Source of the DNA: Ornatilinea apprima
Lineage (GTDB): Bacteria; Chloroflexota; Anaerolineae; Anaerolineales; Anaerolineaceae
Assembly: GCF_001306115.1 (NCBI RefSeq)
Contig: NZ_LGCL01000018.1
Location: 1-47,190, forward strand
Length of the DNA: 47,190 nt
Reading direction: 5' to 3'
The position numbers and the translations under genes were made by a program. Positions 33,330-37,373 of the stretch are shown here, in pieces (position 1 is the stretch's first letter; the number at the start of each line of letters is the position of its first letter). Under the pieces are notes generated by a model, which did not search any database, was not told the DNA's origin, and was given only the letters and a program-made list of their open reading frames with translations.

Positions 33330-33557
33330 TCAGGCGTAATCGAAAACAATTTCGCGGTAGGCGGCTTTAGCCGCGGCCAGCAATTTGACCGCCGGTTCCA
33401 GCAAGGATTTCGGCACGCGCGCGCACAGGCCGCAGTCCGAACTGAACTGGCGCGGCACAGGCACCAGTTTGCATTCCACGCCTTTATCCATCAAGATTTT
33501 TTCAAGGCGCATGGCCTGAGCAGTCGAATCGACCAGAAAATAGGCGTACTCAGTCAT
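33330..33557 (-). CDS. DUF3343 protein (putative Se/S carrier-like)
   Basis: 75 residues: MTEYAYFLVDSTAQAMRLEK at the start, SSDCGLCARVPKSLLE in the middle with a CGLC Cys pair, and VFDYA at the end. This is the DUF3343 family, which in many genomes sits beside yedE, yedF and a selenium-linked cysteine desulfurase. A role as thiol or selenide carrier is suggested by that context but is unproven. ATG 33557 overlaps the desulfurase gene end by eight bases, so translation is probably coupled. Last gene of the operon. Confidence 0.85.
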   Translation of the reverse strand: MTEYAYFLVDSTAQAMRLEKILMDKGVECKLVPVPRQFSSDCGLCARVPKSLLEPAVKLLAAAKAAYREIVFDYA

Positions 33558-34728
33558 TGGCAATCCTTTCCACAGCCCGCAGGGCCGCGTCCACATCCTC
33601 TGCAGATGTAAAGAATCCGATTCCAAAGCGCACGGTGCCCCGCGGCAGGCTGCCCAGGCTGCGATGCGCCGCCGGGGAACAGTGCAGCCCCACCCGGCAT
33701 AGAATATTGAATTCTTCGTCCAGGCGCAGCCCCACCTGAGAAGGCTCAAGCCCCTCCAGGTTAAACGACACCACCGCCACACGCTCGCCGGGGTCCAACG
33801 GGCCGTACAGGCGCGCGCGTCCGATCTGCTGCAGCTCCGCCAGCAATTGGGCGCAGAGCCGCTGTTCATGGGCGCGAATCGATTCCACCCCGCGTGCCAG
33901 CACCACCCTCACCCCAGCGTTCAGACCAGCCAGCCCCACCCCATTGGGCGTGCCGCTTTCAAAACGGTCGGGCAAAAAATCGGGGTGAATTTCGCTTTCG
34001 GAGCGGCTGCCCGTGCCGCCCTGCAGAACCGGCCGCAGACGGCCCAAATCCACCCGCTCGCCAAGGATCAGGCCGCCCGTGCCCATGGGACCCAACAGGC
34101 CTTTGTGCCCGGTGAACGCCAGCAGGTCAATCTGATCGCGCCGCATGTCCACCGGCAGGGTACCGCCCGTCTGGGCCGCGTCTACCAGCAGCATAATCCC
34201 ACGGCGGCGGGTGATCTCGCCCACCTCGCGCACTGGCAAAATCGTACCGCTGACATTCGAGGCATGGTTGAGCGCCACCATCACGGTATTGTCGCGCAGG
34301 GCGTCTTCCACACGCTGGGCGTCCAACCGTCCGGCCTGGCCACACGGCACCACGCTGACCTCTACTCCCTGGCGTTCCAGATCCCTCAGCGGGCGCATCA
34401 TTGAATTGTGCTCCATCCCGCTGGTAATCACATGATCGCCTGCACGCAGATAGCCATGCAAGGCCTGGTTGAGCGCCCAGGTAACATTCGCGCCGAACAC
34501 CACGCGTAGCGCGTCTTCGCAGCCAAATAATTCTGCCACGGCCTCGCGTGCCGCGAACACAATCCGCGCCGCTTCCACCGAAAGGCGGTGCCCTGACCGG
34601 CCGGGGTTCGCGCCCACATTCTGCAAGAAATTCAGCATCGCCGCTGCAACCTCAGGCGGTTTAGGCCAGGATGTCGCCGGGTGGTCCAGATAAATCATCG
34701 CGTTATTGTCAGATGAAATGGTATTCAT
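33550..34728 (-). CDS. Cysteine desulfurase family protein (selenium-cluster type)
   Basis: 392 residues, class V aminotransferase fold. MIYLDHPATSWPKPPEVAAA at residues 11-30 is the family start. PLP-binding residues are in EHNSMMRPLRDL (His107) and LLVDAAQTGGTLPVD (Asp183). The Schiff-base Lys209 is in FTGHKGLLGPMG, and the catalytic Cys is in GLHCSPAAHRSLG. Members of this branch cluster with yedE/yedF in selenium-using bacteria and may release sulfur or selenium from cysteine/selenocysteine. The start ATG 34728 overlaps the yedF stop (ATGA); ATG 34698 would give the more usual N-terminus. Confidence 0.9.
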   Translation of the reverse strand: MNTISSDNNAMIYLDHPATSWPKPPEVAAAMLNFLQNVGANPGRSGHRLSVEAARIVFAAREAVAELFGCEDALRVVFGANVTWALNQALHGYLRAGDHVITSGMEHNSMMRPLRDLERQGVEVSVVPCGQAGRLDAQRVEDALRDNTVMVALNHASNVSGTILPVREVGEITRRRGIMLLVDAAQTGGTLPVDMRRDQIDLLAFTGHKGLLGPMGTGGLILGERVDLGRLRPVLQGGTGSRSESEIHPDFLPDRFESGTPNGVGLAGLNAGVRVVLARGVESIRAHEQRLCAQLLAELQQIGRARLYGPLDPGERVAVVSFNLEGLEPSQVGLRLDEEFNILCRVGLHCSPAAHRSLGSLPRGTVRFGIGFFTSAEDVDAALRAVERIAND

Positions 34729-34934
34729 TTGGAAATCGCCAGAACAAATTCACCATCTTGCTCTTGAATGGTTACATTATATCCCTTGCGCTCAGCAATG
34801 CGGCGCACATTCTCACGCGATGTTACCGAATCCACCCACACTTCAATGGGAAAATCACCTGCCCGCATGGCCTGTTGAGCCAGCATAATCGGCTGCGGAC
34901 AAGACAAACCGCGCGCGTCCACTTTTGTTGCCAT
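34725..34934 (-). CDS. yedF: TusA/YedF-like sulfur(selenium)-carrier protein
   Basis: 69 residues. DARGLSCPQPIMLAQQAM has the conserved CPxP of the TusA/SirA/YedF family; the Cys accepts persulfide or perselenide. The size equals the single-domain TusA type; longer YedF proteins carry an extra C-terminal domain missing here. GGAGGAAACG precedes ATG 34934. It sits between the transporter and the desulfurase, the standard order of the selenium-associated cluster. Confidence 0.88.
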   Translation of the reverse strand: MATKVDARGLSCPQPIMLAQQAMRAGDFPIEVWVDSVTSRENVRRIAERKGYNVTIQEQDGEFVLAISK

Positions 34935-34953: not shown

Positions 34954-36078
34954 TTACGCCAGCTTTTCACGCATTGAAAAACCAATCAGAATACAAACCA
35001 CAATTCCCAGAATCACTGCCGCCATTCCGGCCGGGGTCAGGCCGCCCACCTGCAGGGTGCCCTCCACCAGTTTATCGGGGGTGCCAGCCAGACCAAAATT
35101 GTGAGAAAAACCCGCTCCCACAATCATTCCCAAAACAAAGACCCCCGCGTCGCTGTCGCCTTCTCCAGTCAAAAAGAGCTGCCGCCCAGGGCAGCCGCCC
35201 GCCAGGGCATACGCCAAACCAGAGAGCACCATTCCCAGCACATTCCAGATCAGATTGCTATGGGCAACCGGCTGGGCCGTATAGCCGGGGTGAAACTGAC
35301 CAAATGCCAGGTTGGTTAAAAACGCGGTCACCAGCAAGGCGCCCAGCCCGCTGATCAGGTGTGTGTCGCCCATTAAAATCACGTCGCGCACCGAGCCCAT
35401 GGTGCAGAAGCGTGTGCGCTGGGCTAAAAAGCCAATCACCAAACCAACTCCTAAAGAGATTCCCCATGCGGCATGTAGAGCGCCGGGGCCTTTTCCTTCG
35501 GGGGTGTTAAAGATGGGACCGCCTTCAGCAAACACAGGCTGAATGACGGCCAACAGCAACAATCCGACCATCAGCAGCGGAAAAATCCACCCAACCGCGG
35601 CATACGTCTTTTGGCTGCGTCCCAGGTTATATCCATTTTTCAAAAAGATCACGCCCAGCCAGATGCCGACAGCCAGCCCAACCAGCGCCGGCAGTGCGGT
35701 CAGATCGCCGCCCGCCAGCCGAAAGTTGGCGCGCCACGGGCAGCCTAAAAACGCCAGCGCGCCGATCATCGCAAAGGCTCCGAGCACAAAGCGCACCAAA
35801 GGAGCGGAACCCGCCCGCGCCTTGAACTCGCGAAACACCAGGGCGGCTATCAGCGACCCCAGCACAAACCCGATGATCTCCGGACGGATGTACTGCACCG
35901 CTATAGCGCGGTGCAAGCCCAGCGCGCCGGCAATATCGCGCTCAAAGCAGGCCACGCAAATGCCCATGTTGGGTGGGTTTCCCAGCTTTTGCAGCAGCGA
36001 GCCAAGCGCGCCAATGATCGCGCCCACCAGCACAATTCCCCGGCGGGACGCGAAAAAACGGGTCAAACGTTCCGACAT
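34954..36078 (-). CDS. yedE: YedE-family putative selenium transporter
   Basis: 374 residues with about ten membrane segments, YeeE/YedE (Sulf_transp) family. Two internally related halves each carry conserved Cys motifs: GICVACFERDIAGALGLHR and LGCPWRANFRLAGGDL in the first, AQRTRFCTMGSVRDVILMGD and AGGCPGRQLFLTGEGDSDA in the second. YeeE members import thiosulfate; the YedE branch next to YedF, DUF3343 and this desulfurase is the one linked to selenium. AGGAGG lies five bases before ATG 36078. It is the first full gene of the operon, behind the leader at 36198-36371. Confidence 0.9.
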   Translation of the reverse strand: MSERLTRFFASRRGIVLVGAIIGALGSLLQKLGNPPNMGICVACFERDIAGALGLHRAIAVQYIRPEIIGFVLGSLIAALVFREFKARAGSAPLVRFVLGAFAMIGALAFLGCPWRANFRLAGGDLTALPALVGLAVGIWLGVIFLKNGYNLGRSQKTYAAVGWIFPLLMVGLLLLAVIQPVFAEGGPIFNTPEGKGPGALHAAWGISLGVGLVIGFLAQRTRFCTMGSVRDVILMGDTHLISGLGALLVTAFLTNLAFGQFHPGYTAQPVAHSNLIWNVLGMVLSGLAYALAGGCPGRQLFLTGEGDSDAGVFVLGMIVGAGFSHNFGLAGTPDKLVEGTLQVGGLTPAGMAAVILGIVVCILIGFSMREKLA

Positions 36079-36197
36079 ACATTCCTCCTGTACCAAGAAT
36101 TAAAATACCCCGCTTTTCCCGGTGAAAAACGGTGGTTTCCCAAACCAAGAGCACGTATTTGCGCGAAAGGATGAAAATTCAAGGCATCCCTCCAAAC

Positions 36198-36227
36198 AAA
36201 AAAAACTGCCAGCGCTTGCTGGCAGTT
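36198..36227 (-). terminator. Intrinsic terminator in the yedE leader (attenuator)
   Basis: Minus strand: AACTGCCAGC, loop AAGC, GCTGGCAGTT, a perfect 10-pair stem running into eight T residues. It lies between the leader ORF and yedE, so it must be bypassed to express the operon. AACTGCCGCTT at 36277-36287 can pair with the loop and 3' arm through 11 pairs with one bulge. GCTGGTCAG in the SECIS-like hairpin can pair with the 5' arm CTGCCAGC with one bulged base. Confidence 0.85.
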
Positions 36228-36245
36228 CGCCGGAGGGAAGGAGGA

Positions 36246-36359
36246 TTAGACCTTCACCAAACGAAACAGCCCGATCAAGCGGCAGTTCAGGTCCTGGCGC
36301 TGACCAGCGCCAATGTGGATCACTCAGCGTAAGCGATTGCGGTTCATCAGATTCATCAT
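36246..36359 (-). CDS. Putative selenocysteine-containing leader peptide upstream of yedE (37 aa, UGA at codon 12)
   Basis: ATG 36359, then MMNLMNRNRLR, TGA at 36324-36326, then 25 more codons in frame to TAA 36246-36248 (the later part reads QRQDLNCRLIGLFRLVKV). The UGA is followed by a hairpin with apical GGUC at +19 to +22, matching the fdhF SECIS geometry. The ORF starts at the predicted transcription start, without a ribosome-binding site. If UGA is a stop, the product is 11 residues, and the GTG right after it could restart translation. The cluster context (selenium transport) favours selenocysteine. Expression, readthrough and conservation are not shown. Confidence 0.55.
36295..36312 (-). 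promoter_or_regulatory. SECIS-like hairpin after the leader UGA
   Basis: RNA UGGCGCU-GGUC-AGCGCCA: seven pairs closing a GGUC loop. The loop lies at +19 to +22 after the UGA, the position and loop sequence I recall for the E. coli fdhF selenocysteine insertion element. An outer UCC/GGA step with a bulged ACAU on the 5' side extends it. Confidence 0.6.
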
Positions 36360-36371
36360 AGGTCTATTATA
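36359..36371 (-). promoter_or_regulatory. -10 element of the yedE leader
   Basis: Minus strand TATAAT (36366-36371) with six bases to the ATG at 36359, predicting a leaderless transcript. The -35 is poor: GAACTT at 17 bases, TTGAGA only at 21. Confidence 0.5.
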
Positions 36372-36433: not shown

Positions 36434-37213
36434 TCATACCGACATTGAAAACACCACCCATCCCGCCGAAAGATCCAGCAGGGCGTGAATCACCATCAGG
36501 TAGGGCAGCAGGCGCGGACGCAAGCGCAGGGCGATGCCCAGCAGCAGCGCGAAAGGCAGGAACATAATTAAGCGCCAGAGCGCGAAACGCCAGTCAAAAA
36601 TCAGCGGCAGCGTGCAGTGCTGCGCGCCCAGAAAGAAAGCCGGAATCAGCACCGCCAGCCATTTCGGCGCGCCGTGCGCCTCGATGCGCGGCATCAGGTA
36701 GCCAAAATAGAGCGGCAGTTCCGCAAAGGCAATCGTAGCCGGGAAAACCACCAGCCCAATAATCGCCGCCCACAGCGGCAGGGGCAGAATCATCATCGCA
36801 TTCGCCGCTTCCAGGCTGCCAAAGAGGGCCTGCGCGGCAAAATAATTCGGGGCGACGGATACCGGCCCGGCCAGCACCAGCAGGCCCAGCACGGCCAGCA
36901 GATCTTTGCCCAGGTGCTGGCGATCCAGGGCCACCATTTCGCGATATCTTCCCCCTTCAACGCGCAGGAAAACGATCAACACCCCCAGGGTGATCAGGTT
37001 GGCGGCGGCAGCAGCTACCGTCCACCACGCAGTCGAAGCCTGCCAGGGATCGGGCACGCGGTTGATGAAATAGATCAGGGCGATCAGCGCCTGGACGGCC
37101 GCGAACAAGAACCCGCGCATCAGCAGGCCAACAATCAGGCGCGCGCGGGGAATCTTCCCGTCTGCAACACGCTGCCGGATGAGTTCAAGTGGATTCAGAG
37201 TGGATTCAACCAT
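36434..37213 (-). CDS. CPBP-like membrane protein (atypical motif 1)
   Basis: About 259 residues, seven to eight membrane segments. The layout follows the CPBP intramembrane protease family: FAELPLYFGYLMPR where motif 1 (E-E-x3-R) is expected, FFLGAQHCTLP as motif 2 (F-x3-H) and HALLDLSAGW as motif 3 (H-x3-D/N). Motif 1 has only one Glu (EL in place of EE), so proteolytic activity is doubtful. The start is ATG 37213 (or TTG 37219, better spaced from GGGAGG). Its 3' end lies only 63 bp from the yedE leader promoter, with no terminator seen between. Confidence 0.65.
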   Translation of the reverse strand: MVESTLNPLELIRQRVADGKIPRARLIVGLLMRGFLFAAVQALIALIYFINRVPDPWQASTAWWTVAAAAANLITLGVLIVFLRVEGGRYREMVALDRQHLGKDLLAVLGLLVLAGPVSVAPNYFAAQALFGSLEAANAMMILPLPLWAAIIGLVVFPATIAFAELPLYFGYLMPRIEAHGAPKWLAVLIPAFFLGAQHCTLPLIFDWRFALWRLIMFLPFALLLGIALRLRPRLLPYLMVIHALLDLSAGWVVFSMSV

Positions 37214-37373
37214 GTTCAAACGCGCCTCCCGATGATGCTAGAAGAATAAACTCATTTTACCAACAATCCATCACCCACAGAAAACAAACAGGATCAAATC
37301 TGAAGGGTTTTTGATACAATCAAATGAATAACCCTTACCCATTGTAGAGCATTTGGAAAGCGTGGTATTTTTT

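What the first reader, a model, noticed from the sequence alone, without database searches (positions are those of the whole stretch)
36198..36371. Putative selenocysteine-decoding leader peptide and attenuator in front of a selenium-transport operon
Seen: a TATAAT followed after six bases by ATG 36359; a 37-residue ORF with in-frame UGA at codon 12; a hairpin with apical GGUC at +19 to +22 after the UGA; a stop 114 bases from the start; then a perfect 10-pair terminator with eight T residues before yedE. AACTGCC occurs twice, in the terminator 5' arm and at 36281-36287, so the earlier copy extended by GCTT can capture the terminator loop and 3' arm. The SECIS-like GCTGGTCAG can instead pair with the terminator 5' arm. 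Known: as I recall, E. coli fdhF has GGUC in the same position after its UGA; YedE/YedF/DUF3343 clusters go with selenium use. Inferred: ribosome behaviour at the UGA (stop when selenium is scarce, selenocysteine when plentiful) sets terminator folding and thereby transporter expression. I know of no described leader peptide of this kind.
Basis: partly seen in the sequence, partly recalled or inferred. Interest (0 to 1): 0.95.

Follow-up and report, generated by a model that had tools for sequence, protein, structure and literature searches.

The report
Selenocysteine-reading switch for selenium genes
In front of a likely selenium-transport gene, this bacterium and many relatives carry a short conserved leader with an in-frame UGA codon, a hairpin of the selenocysteine-insertion type and two predicted RNA folds that exclude each other, and it is predicted to turn selenium-uptake genes down when ribosomes can read the UGA as selenocysteine, which would be a new way for a cell to sense selenium.

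Summary
The genome encodes SelA, SelB, SelD and tRNA-Sec. I located leaders of this design before 42 of 54 yedE genes over the family cut-off in sampled genomes of the window's class and family: short ORF, in-frame UGA, hairpin loop mostly at +19 or +21, second in-frame stop. In 27 leaders with a usable terminator the first stop after the UGA falls inside the switch in frame 0 in 27/27, against 6/27 and 8/27 in the other frames. Hairpin, terminator and a mutually exclusive antiterminator helix co-vary across 24 sequences. Many leaders can also pair with the Shine-Dalgarno sequence. A model trained only on yedE leaders also finds leaders before selD, a Sec-lyase operon, YedF-type DsrE genes and a putative selenate ABC transporter in relatives. 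Nine genomes of a genus that includes Flexilinea keep yedE but lack SelA, SelB and tRNA-Sec; no leader was seen there. Most likely mechanism (inferred): Sec decoding carries the ribosome over the antiterminator, the terminator or SD-blocking fold forms, genes go off; termination at UGA leaves them on. No experiment exists; in the window itself the antiterminator is weak (p=0.106).

The parts
36366..36371 (-). TATAAT, putative -10 box; would place the transcript start at or next to the ATG (leaderless)
   Evidence: read directly; no promoter by scanner
36246..36359 (-). leader ORF: ATG 36359, 11 codons, UGA, 25 codons, TAA 36248-36246
   Evidence: first stop after the UGA inside the switch in 27 of 27 leaders with a usable terminator in frame 0, 6 and 8 of 27 in the other frames
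36324..36326 (-). in-frame UGA, predicted selenocysteine codon
   Evidence: the 42 yedE leaders were located by their UGA, so its presence there is by construction; among R1 hits read outside yedE one leader has UCA instead (L195)
36295..36312 (-). SECIS-type hairpin, loop GGUC 36305-36302 at +19 after the UGA
   Evidence: 98.8% of cells paired over 24 sequences, 6 of 7 pairs with changes on both sides; own selD UGA is followed by a GGAC-loop hairpin at +18 (read by eye)
36263..36284 (-). antiterminator strand, inside the part of the ORF reached only if the UGA is decoded
   Evidence: family helix 84.1% paired, 10 of 11 pairs with changes on both sides, slid controls 19-44%; in the window itself weak, E -16.3, z -1.4, p 0.106
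36232..36245 (-). two pyrimidine stretches TCCTCCT (36245-36239) and TCCCTCC (36238-36232): candidate anti-Shine-Dalgarno strand
   Evidence: complementary by eye to AGGAGGA 36089-36083 (yedE SD) and GGAGGGA 36193-36187; in the window p 0.093 (SD) and 0.306 (behind the terminator); p<0.05 in 12 of 17 leaders outside the window's subgroup
36198..36227 (-). intrinsic terminator, 10-pair stem and eight T
   Evidence: terminator helix 91.7% paired over 24 sequences, 7 of 10 pairs with changes on both sides
36083..36089 (-). yedE Shine-Dalgarno AGGAGGA
   Evidence: read directly
34954..36078 (-). yedE, putative selenium transporter
   Evidence: TIGR04112 457.5 bits, cut-off 200
34725..34934 (-). 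TusA/YedF-like protein
   Evidence: PF01206 57 bits; TIGR03527 50.5 bits, below its cut-off 110
33550..34728 (-). cysteine desulfurase / Sec-lyase-like protein
   Evidence: TIGR01977 449.6 bits, cut-off 377
33330..33557 (-). DUF3343 / Se_S_carrier protein
   Evidence: PF11823 67 bits, cut-off 25

Best explanation
The leader is a conserved RNA element with an in-frame UGA, a SECIS-type hairpin and two predicted folds that exclude each other, and it most likely senses selenocysteine supply: when the UGA is decoded the ribosome would run to the second stop and cover the antiterminator strand, so the terminator (and, in many relatives, a Shine-Dalgarno-blocking helix) would form and the selenium genes would go off; when the ribosome terminates or stalls at the UGA the antiterminator would stay free and the genes would be on. 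Shown by sequence: the anatomy, its conservation, the frame after the UGA, co-variation of hairpin, terminator and antiterminator, its place before several selenium genes in relatives, and joint absence with Sec machinery in one genus. Inferred: that SelB decodes this UGA, that transcription and translation are coupled here, the direction of the switch, and the extra translational layer. The two leader subtypes look like one sensor on two outputs: subtype A (loop mostly at +19) mostly with an intrinsic terminator, subtype B (loop mostly at +21) mostly without one and with predicted Shine-Dalgarno sequestration.
For: Sec machinery in the genome: tRNA-Sec 68.2 bits, SelB 318.7 (356.2 joined), SelA 549.5, SelD 359.1 with an in-frame UGA. 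Leaders before 42 of 54 yedE loci over the cut-off. Frame test 27/27 against 6/27 and 8/27. Co-variation: hairpin + terminator 94.6% paired, 13 of 17 pairs changed on both sides, 0/500 shuffles on all five measures; antiterminator 84.1%, 10 of 11 pairs, 0-1/500 on four measures and 28/500 on the fifth. Antiterminator against shuffles: 20 of 27 at p<0.05, mean z -2.96. Folding: ribosome at UGA, arm captured upstream before the 3' arm exists in 26 of 27, still so in the full-length minimum-energy fold in 18 of 27; ribosome at second stop, terminator in 27 of 27. Anti-SD pairing p<0.05 in 12 of 17 and in 11 of 17 (three leaders are in both sets), against 1 of 9 no-leader controls. Regulon by a model trained on yedE leaders only: selD, Sec-lyase operon, four YedF-type DsrE genes, TIGR04553 selenate ABC protein at 357 bits. 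Genus g117: 9 of 9 genomes without SelA, SelB over cut-off or tRNA-Sec; no leader in the 7 with enough upstream sequence. In Methanococcus maripaludis yedE transcript rises on selenium starvation (PMC11097638, passages).
Against: No experiment. In the window the antiterminator is weak (p 0.106), the full-length fold with a ribosome at the UGA keeps the terminator, and the naked-RNA minimum fold pairs the SECIS strand elsewhere. L021 has no antiterminator beyond chance (p 0.947), and L030, L035, L053, L072, L075 and the window also exceed p 0.05. 15 of 42 leaders gave no terminator, or only one that I dropped. Mere openness of frame 0 is less striking: 18 or more codons in 37 of 42, against 23 and 20 of 42. 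L026 and L016 fit poorly. L070 and L013 lie in genomes with Sec machinery and showed no leader before yedE (in L013 yedE is inside an operon). R1 missed most subtype B leaders, and in the window's own genome it found only this one leader. PMC5322559 (passages) calls it an attractive hypothesis that YedE exports selenium, which would not fit an off-when-plentiful switch. Coupling of transcription and translation in these bacteria is unknown to me. Related sequences make the p values non-independent.
Confidence: 0.8

Rival explanations
1. SelB (with or without Sec-tRNA) binds the hairpin and regulates by binding alone, as recalled for the SECIS-like element before E. coli selAB; the UGA is merely the stop of a leader peptide of about 7-15 residues.
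For: The hairpin is of the SelB-binding type and co-varies; SelB is in the genome.
Against: The first stop after the UGA falls inside the switch in 27 of 27 leaders in frame 0 but in only 6 and 8 of 27 in the other frames, and the antiterminator lies inside that second ORF part, which binding alone does not need.
Confidence: 0.08
2. The same Sec-decoding sensor acts only on translation initiation (Shine-Dalgarno sequestration); the terminator is constitutive or secondary.
For: Anti-SD pairing in 11 of 17 mostly terminator-less leaders and in 12 of 17 others (three shared); an upstream partner of the anti-SD stretch in 7 of 13.
Against: The antiterminator helix co-varies with the terminator arm in 24 sequences, which a constitutive terminator would not need. 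In the window's own subgroup the SD pairing is not significant in any of 10.
Confidence: 0.07
3. The leader encodes a small functional selenopeptide, with an ordinary terminator behind it.
For: The Sec-extended ORF (very roughly 30-45 codons) is conserved in position.
Against: By eye the peptide after U is not conserved beyond what the hairpin dictates, and in L035 the hairpin is read in another frame while the second stop is retained; identity drops only mildly at third codon positions.
Confidence: 0.03
4. Chance alignment of features, or an unrelated attenuator whose leader happens to end in UGA.
For: Each single feature (TATAAT, short ORF, terminator) is common.
Against: 29 of 51 against 0.23 expected; leaders before selenium genes.
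Confidence: 0.01

Closest known systems
Ribosome-mediated transcription attenuators (trp, his, phe leader peptides; general knowledge)
   Same: Leader ORF, ribosome position chooses between antiterminator and terminator, amino-acid supply is sensed by decoding; 7 of 27 leaders here end in CCC-UGA, as E. coli pheL does (PMC5009743, passages)
   Different: The sensor is one stop codon that must be recoded, with a SECIS-type hairpin downstream, instead of a run of sense codons; the signal would be selenium/Sec-tRNA; decoding would turn the gene off by masking the antiterminator near a second stop
SECIS-like element in the E. coli selAB leader (Thanbichler and Boeck 2002, recalled; the DOI that I tried is not held)
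   Same: SECIS-type hairpin in a 5' leader of a selenium gene
   Different: As recalled, that element works by SelB binding, without a Sec codon or attenuator
Bacterial SECIS elements in selenoprotein genes (fdhF recalled; selD of this genome)
   Same: UGA followed after about 11-14 bases by a hairpin with G in the apical loop; own-genome selD has GGAC at +18 (by eye)
   Different: Here the product would be a regulatory leader peptide, not an enzyme
Selenium-dependent nonsense-mediated decay of eukaryotic selenoprotein mRNAs (recalled)
   Same: UGA decoding efficiency reports selenium status
   Different: Acts on decay of the selenoprotein's own message in eukaryotes; no attenuator
Riboswitches with terminator or SD-sequestering platforms (general knowledge)
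   Same: One sensor on two kinds of output
   Different: No Rfam family matches

Membership tests
Bacterial Sec insertion site (UGA + SECIS) | in-frame UGA in an ORF whose frame continues | tested here: met
   ATG/GTG start before the UGA and frame kept after it; translation itself not shown
Bacterial Sec insertion site (UGA + SECIS) | hairpin at near-fixed distance after UGA with G in the apical loop, supported by co-variation | tested here: met
Bacterial Sec insertion site (UGA + SECIS) | SelA, SelB, tRNA-Sec, SelD in the same genome | tested here: met
Bacterial Sec insertion site (UGA + SECIS) | SelB binds the hairpin and Sec is inserted | not testable with these tools
   needs ribosome profiling, 75Se labelling or a reporter
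Ribosome-mediated transcription attenuator | intrinsic terminator between leader ORF and first gene | tested here: met
   window and 26 further leaders; the other 15 of 42 gave none or one that I dropped
Ribosome-mediated transcription attenuator | antiterminator that excludes the terminator and lies under the translating ribosome | tested here: met
   family; for the window alone inconclusive (p 0.106)
Ribosome-mediated transcription attenuator | expression depends on leader translation and on the sensed amino acid | not testable with these tools
   no expression data
E. coli selAB-type SelB-binding leader | regulation by SelB binding without decoding of a UGA | tested here: inconclusive
   the conserved frame after the UGA argues against binding alone; not excluded
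Known Rfam RNA family or riboswitch | match to an Rfam model | tested here: not met
   0 matches in the whole window at gathering score; in 10 leader-bearing loci only one tRNA up to E 0.5

The most novel reading that the evidence does not exclude
This is the first selenium sensor built from recoding itself: a Sec-decoding attenuator that runs a selenium regulon (transporter yedE, selD, Sec lyase, YedF-type proteins, a putative selenate ABC transporter) across Anaerolineae, with interchangeable transcriptional and translational outputs. Its logic implies that YedE and the TIGR04553 ABC protein are importers.
Probability: 0.75. Interest if true: 0.96.

Novelty: new variant of a known kind. Interest (0 to 1): 0.93.

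Why it matters
How bacteria sense selenium is largely open. [quoted passage not shown] A leader that reads Sec-tRNA supply would answer the sensing question for many members of a large bacterial class, would mark selenium genes by their leader (here YedF-type DsrE genes and a TIGR04553 ABC transporter), and predicts that these genes are induced by selenium scarcity, as expected for importers. It also extends attenuation from sense codons to a recoded stop codon. Nine answered literature searches listed no paper whose title or abstract start describes such a leader; the library holds open-access papers only and no bioRxiv preprints, so a description elsewhere is not excluded.

Tried and rejected
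DNA similarity to the leader found no relative in 60 other genomes (only the window itself), so homologues were found through yedE. Model hits L202 and L204 show a terminator but, by eye, no leader anatomy and were rejected; so was the 21-bit hit in L049, by eye a terminator before another gene. The E_noT column came from a faulty constraint and is not used. A looser scan also hit 4 of 60 records not labelled Chloroflexota nor set aside (L099, L114, L124, L153), with unrelated loops, which I take as chance; L083 (labelled Caldithrix, no hit) and L084 (unnamed bacterium, a hit with loop at +18) were left out of the 58, as were L100 and L125 for too little upstream sequence.

Rows dropped: L010, L016, L019 and L023 were left out because their terminator call was not convincing, and the 11 leaders without any terminator call could not be tested; 27 of 42 remained. 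For the doubled-UGA leaders L027 and L029 the second UGA was used, for L010, L019 and L022. In some searches only 11 and 24 leaders were aligned (subtype A with terminator; L020 left out as near-copy of L014; L097 added from named contigs). 34 of 42 UGA positions came from the scan and 8 were set by hand (L009, L010, L019, L022, L023, L026, L027, L029). The first stops of L016 and L026 lie beyond the yedE start. Of R1 hits I fetched 13 not at a known yedE; hits with E above 1e-6 were not read. The functional-selenopeptide idea was tested by codon position and frame and set aside.

Full report
OBSERVATION. The genes behind it are yedE (TIGR04112 457.5 bits), a TusA/YedF-like gene, a cysteine desulfurase/Sec-lyase-like gene and a DUF3343 Se/S-carrier gene.

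SEC MACHINERY. The genome (98.8% complete, 8.7% contaminated) has tRNA-Sec (68.2 bits), SelB, SelA and SelD with an in-frame UGA. That selD UGA is followed by an AGCGC-GGAC-GCGCT hairpin with its loop at +18 (read by eye): a likely selenoprotein site of the same genome looks like the leader's.

RELATIVES. TIGR04112 over its cut-off occurs in 30 of 150 class genomes and 25 of 147 family genomes, each count with the window's own: 54 distinct loci. I located leaders before 42: 34 by a scan, 8 by hand. The 12 without are nine loci of genus g117, two of them with little or no upstream sequence (L067, L073), plus L013 (yedE inside an operon), L070 (divergent yedE) and L076 (contig end). Subtype A (27 leaders) has its loop mostly at +19 (GGUC, GGUU, AGUU, GGAC and the like). 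Subtype B (15) has it mostly at +21 (mostly C-G-G/U-G-N); in one fixed register all seven pairs form in 8 of 15 and the inner six in 12 of 15, while L011, L016 and L034 fit only in another register. Among 80 named yedE contigs a looser scan and model R1 found leaders in records labelled Chloroflexota or Anaerolineae and in one Phototrophicales record, L151; the strict scan hit 1 of 58 records with other labels, and none at the higher threshold. The class name is inferred: one family genome has a YedE identical to that of Flexilinea flocculi, which is Anaerolineaceae.

FRAME. In the window's subgroup (10 sequences) the second stop lies exactly 20 codons after the UGA in 8, at 18 and 25 in the others. 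Over the 27 leaders with a usable terminator the first stop after the UGA falls between +48 and the terminator arm in 27 of 27 in frame 0, in 6 and 8 of 27 in the other frames. By eye the amino acids are not conserved beyond the hairpin, and in L035 the hairpin is read in another frame while the stop is retained. So what is kept is where a ribosome that passes the UGA would stop.

CO-VARIATION. On 24 aligned subtype A leaders, hairpin and terminator are paired in 94.6% of cells, with changes on both sides in 13 of 17 pairs; none of 500 shuffles reaches this, and slid versions pair 33-53%. The antiterminator helix, which uses the terminator's 5' arm and loop, is paired in 84.1%, with changes on both sides in 10 of 11 pairs; slid versions pair 19-44%. 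On the 11 leaders nearest the window it is 82.6% and 8 of 11. Against shuffles, 20 of 27 antiterminators reach p<0.05. The sequences are related, so these are not independent probabilities. The window's own antiterminator gives p 0.106.

SWITCH GEOMETRY. The antiterminator strand begins at +38 to +49, just behind the hairpin, and ends before or within the second stop in 26 of 27 (in L057 the best duplex runs 20 bases past it). A ribosome at the UGA would leave it free, one at the second stop would cover it. Folding with those footprints (13 bases assumed) gives upstream capture of the terminator arm, before the 3' arm exists, in 26 of 27 and in the full-length minimum fold in 18 of 27; with a ribosome at the second stop the terminator forms in 27 of 27. 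In 10 of 27 the codon before the second stop is a proline codon; CCC-UGA at the end of E. coli pheL is a frameshifting site (PMC5009743, passages). A slow stop would help to hold the ribosome there (inference).

SECOND LAYER. Between second stop and terminator lies a pyrimidine stretch that can pair with the yedE Shine-Dalgarno sequence: p<0.05 in 12 of 17 leaders outside the window's subgroup, 0 of 10 inside it; inside it the partner is more often a GGAGG-like stretch behind the terminator (4 of 10, against 2 of 17 outside). In a set of 17 leaders, 14 of them without a usable terminator (the other three shared), SD pairing reaches p<0.05 in 11, against 1 of 9 no-leader controls, and a stretch between hairpin and anti-SD strand can pair with the latter in 7 of 13. 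I read this as one sensor on two output platforms.

REGULON. Model R1, trained on yedE leaders only, was run on class and family genomes. In the window's own genome it found this leader only. I fetched 13 hits that are not at a known yedE. With UGA and full anatomy: before selD (L192), before a Sec-lyase / DUF3343-like (by eye) / selD operon (L193), before YedF-type DsrE genes (L196, L198, L199, L200; TIGR03527 90-100 bits, under its cut-off of 110; they match only its C-terminal part), before a TIGR04553 putative selenate ABC substrate-binding protein, 357 bits (L203), before an AP_endonuc_2 gene and an ABC transporter (L194), and before an unclear gene (L197). In these nine the second stop lies 24-26 codons after the UGA. 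L195 has UCA in place of UGA and a damaged hairpin but keeps antiterminator and terminator, before a Sec-lyase/YedF operon; whether that genome decodes Sec was not tested. L201 is a contig end; L202 and L204 are false.

NATURAL CONTROL. Nine genomes of genus g117 keep yedE but have no SelB over cut-off, no tRNA-Sec and no SelA; no leader was seen in the seven with enough upstream sequence. All 42 leader-bearing genomes have at least one of SelA, SelB or tRNA-Sec over cut-off (SelA was sought in only 20 of the 54 genomes). This is one clade, hence one or few events. G263 (L070) and G044 (L013) have Sec machinery but no leader at yedE.

VERDICT. Anatomy, frame, co-variation and regulon together make a Sec-decoding attenuator the best explanation (0.8). 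Direction (off when Sec is plentiful) follows from geometry and fits yedE induction by selenium starvation in Methanococcus maripaludis (PMC11097638, passages), but not the exporter idea in PMC5322559 (passages), and is not shown here. It works like a ribosome-mediated attenuator; the sensing principle is new as far as nine literature searches reach. Other papers of which I saw passages: PMC9312934, PMC13188914, PMC8659212, PMC11097638 also; in those passages I saw no such leader.

Noticed in passing
L010, L019, L022 (subtype B) and L027, L029 (subtype A): Two in-frame UGA codons two positions apart (UGA-xxx-UGA); the second has the usual distance to the hairpin. If both must be decoded this would make the switch steeper; unexplained.
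   Followed up: partly
L195, 4084-3941 minus strand: Leader with UCA instead of UGA and a damaged hairpin, but antiterminator and terminator kept, before a Sec-lyase/DUF3343-like/YedF operon; its genome's Sec genes were not tested.
   Followed up: partly
L203:2518-3531 minus: A TIGR04553 putative selenate ABC substrate-binding protein stands behind a Sec-type leader: independent hint that it handles selenium.
   Followed up: partly
L194: The leader stands before an AP_endonuc_2 (TIM barrel) gene and an SBP_bac_6 ABC transporter not known to me for selenium: candidate new selenium genes, or a rearranged contig.
   Followed up: no
window 36193-36187 and equivalents in L058-L061, L063-L065, L072, L075: In the window's subgroup a GGAGG-type stretch behind the terminator can pair with the pyrimidine stretch before it (4 of 10 at p<0.05), and 102-155 bases lie between terminator and yedE; function unknown.
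   Followed up: partly
L049, selD on the + strand: SelD of this genome is itself a selenoprotein candidate with an in-frame UGA and a GGAC-loop hairpin.
   Followed up: partly
window 36434-37219, minus strand: ORF upstream of the leader, hydrophobic by eye, no Pfam or NCBIfam match.
   Followed up: no
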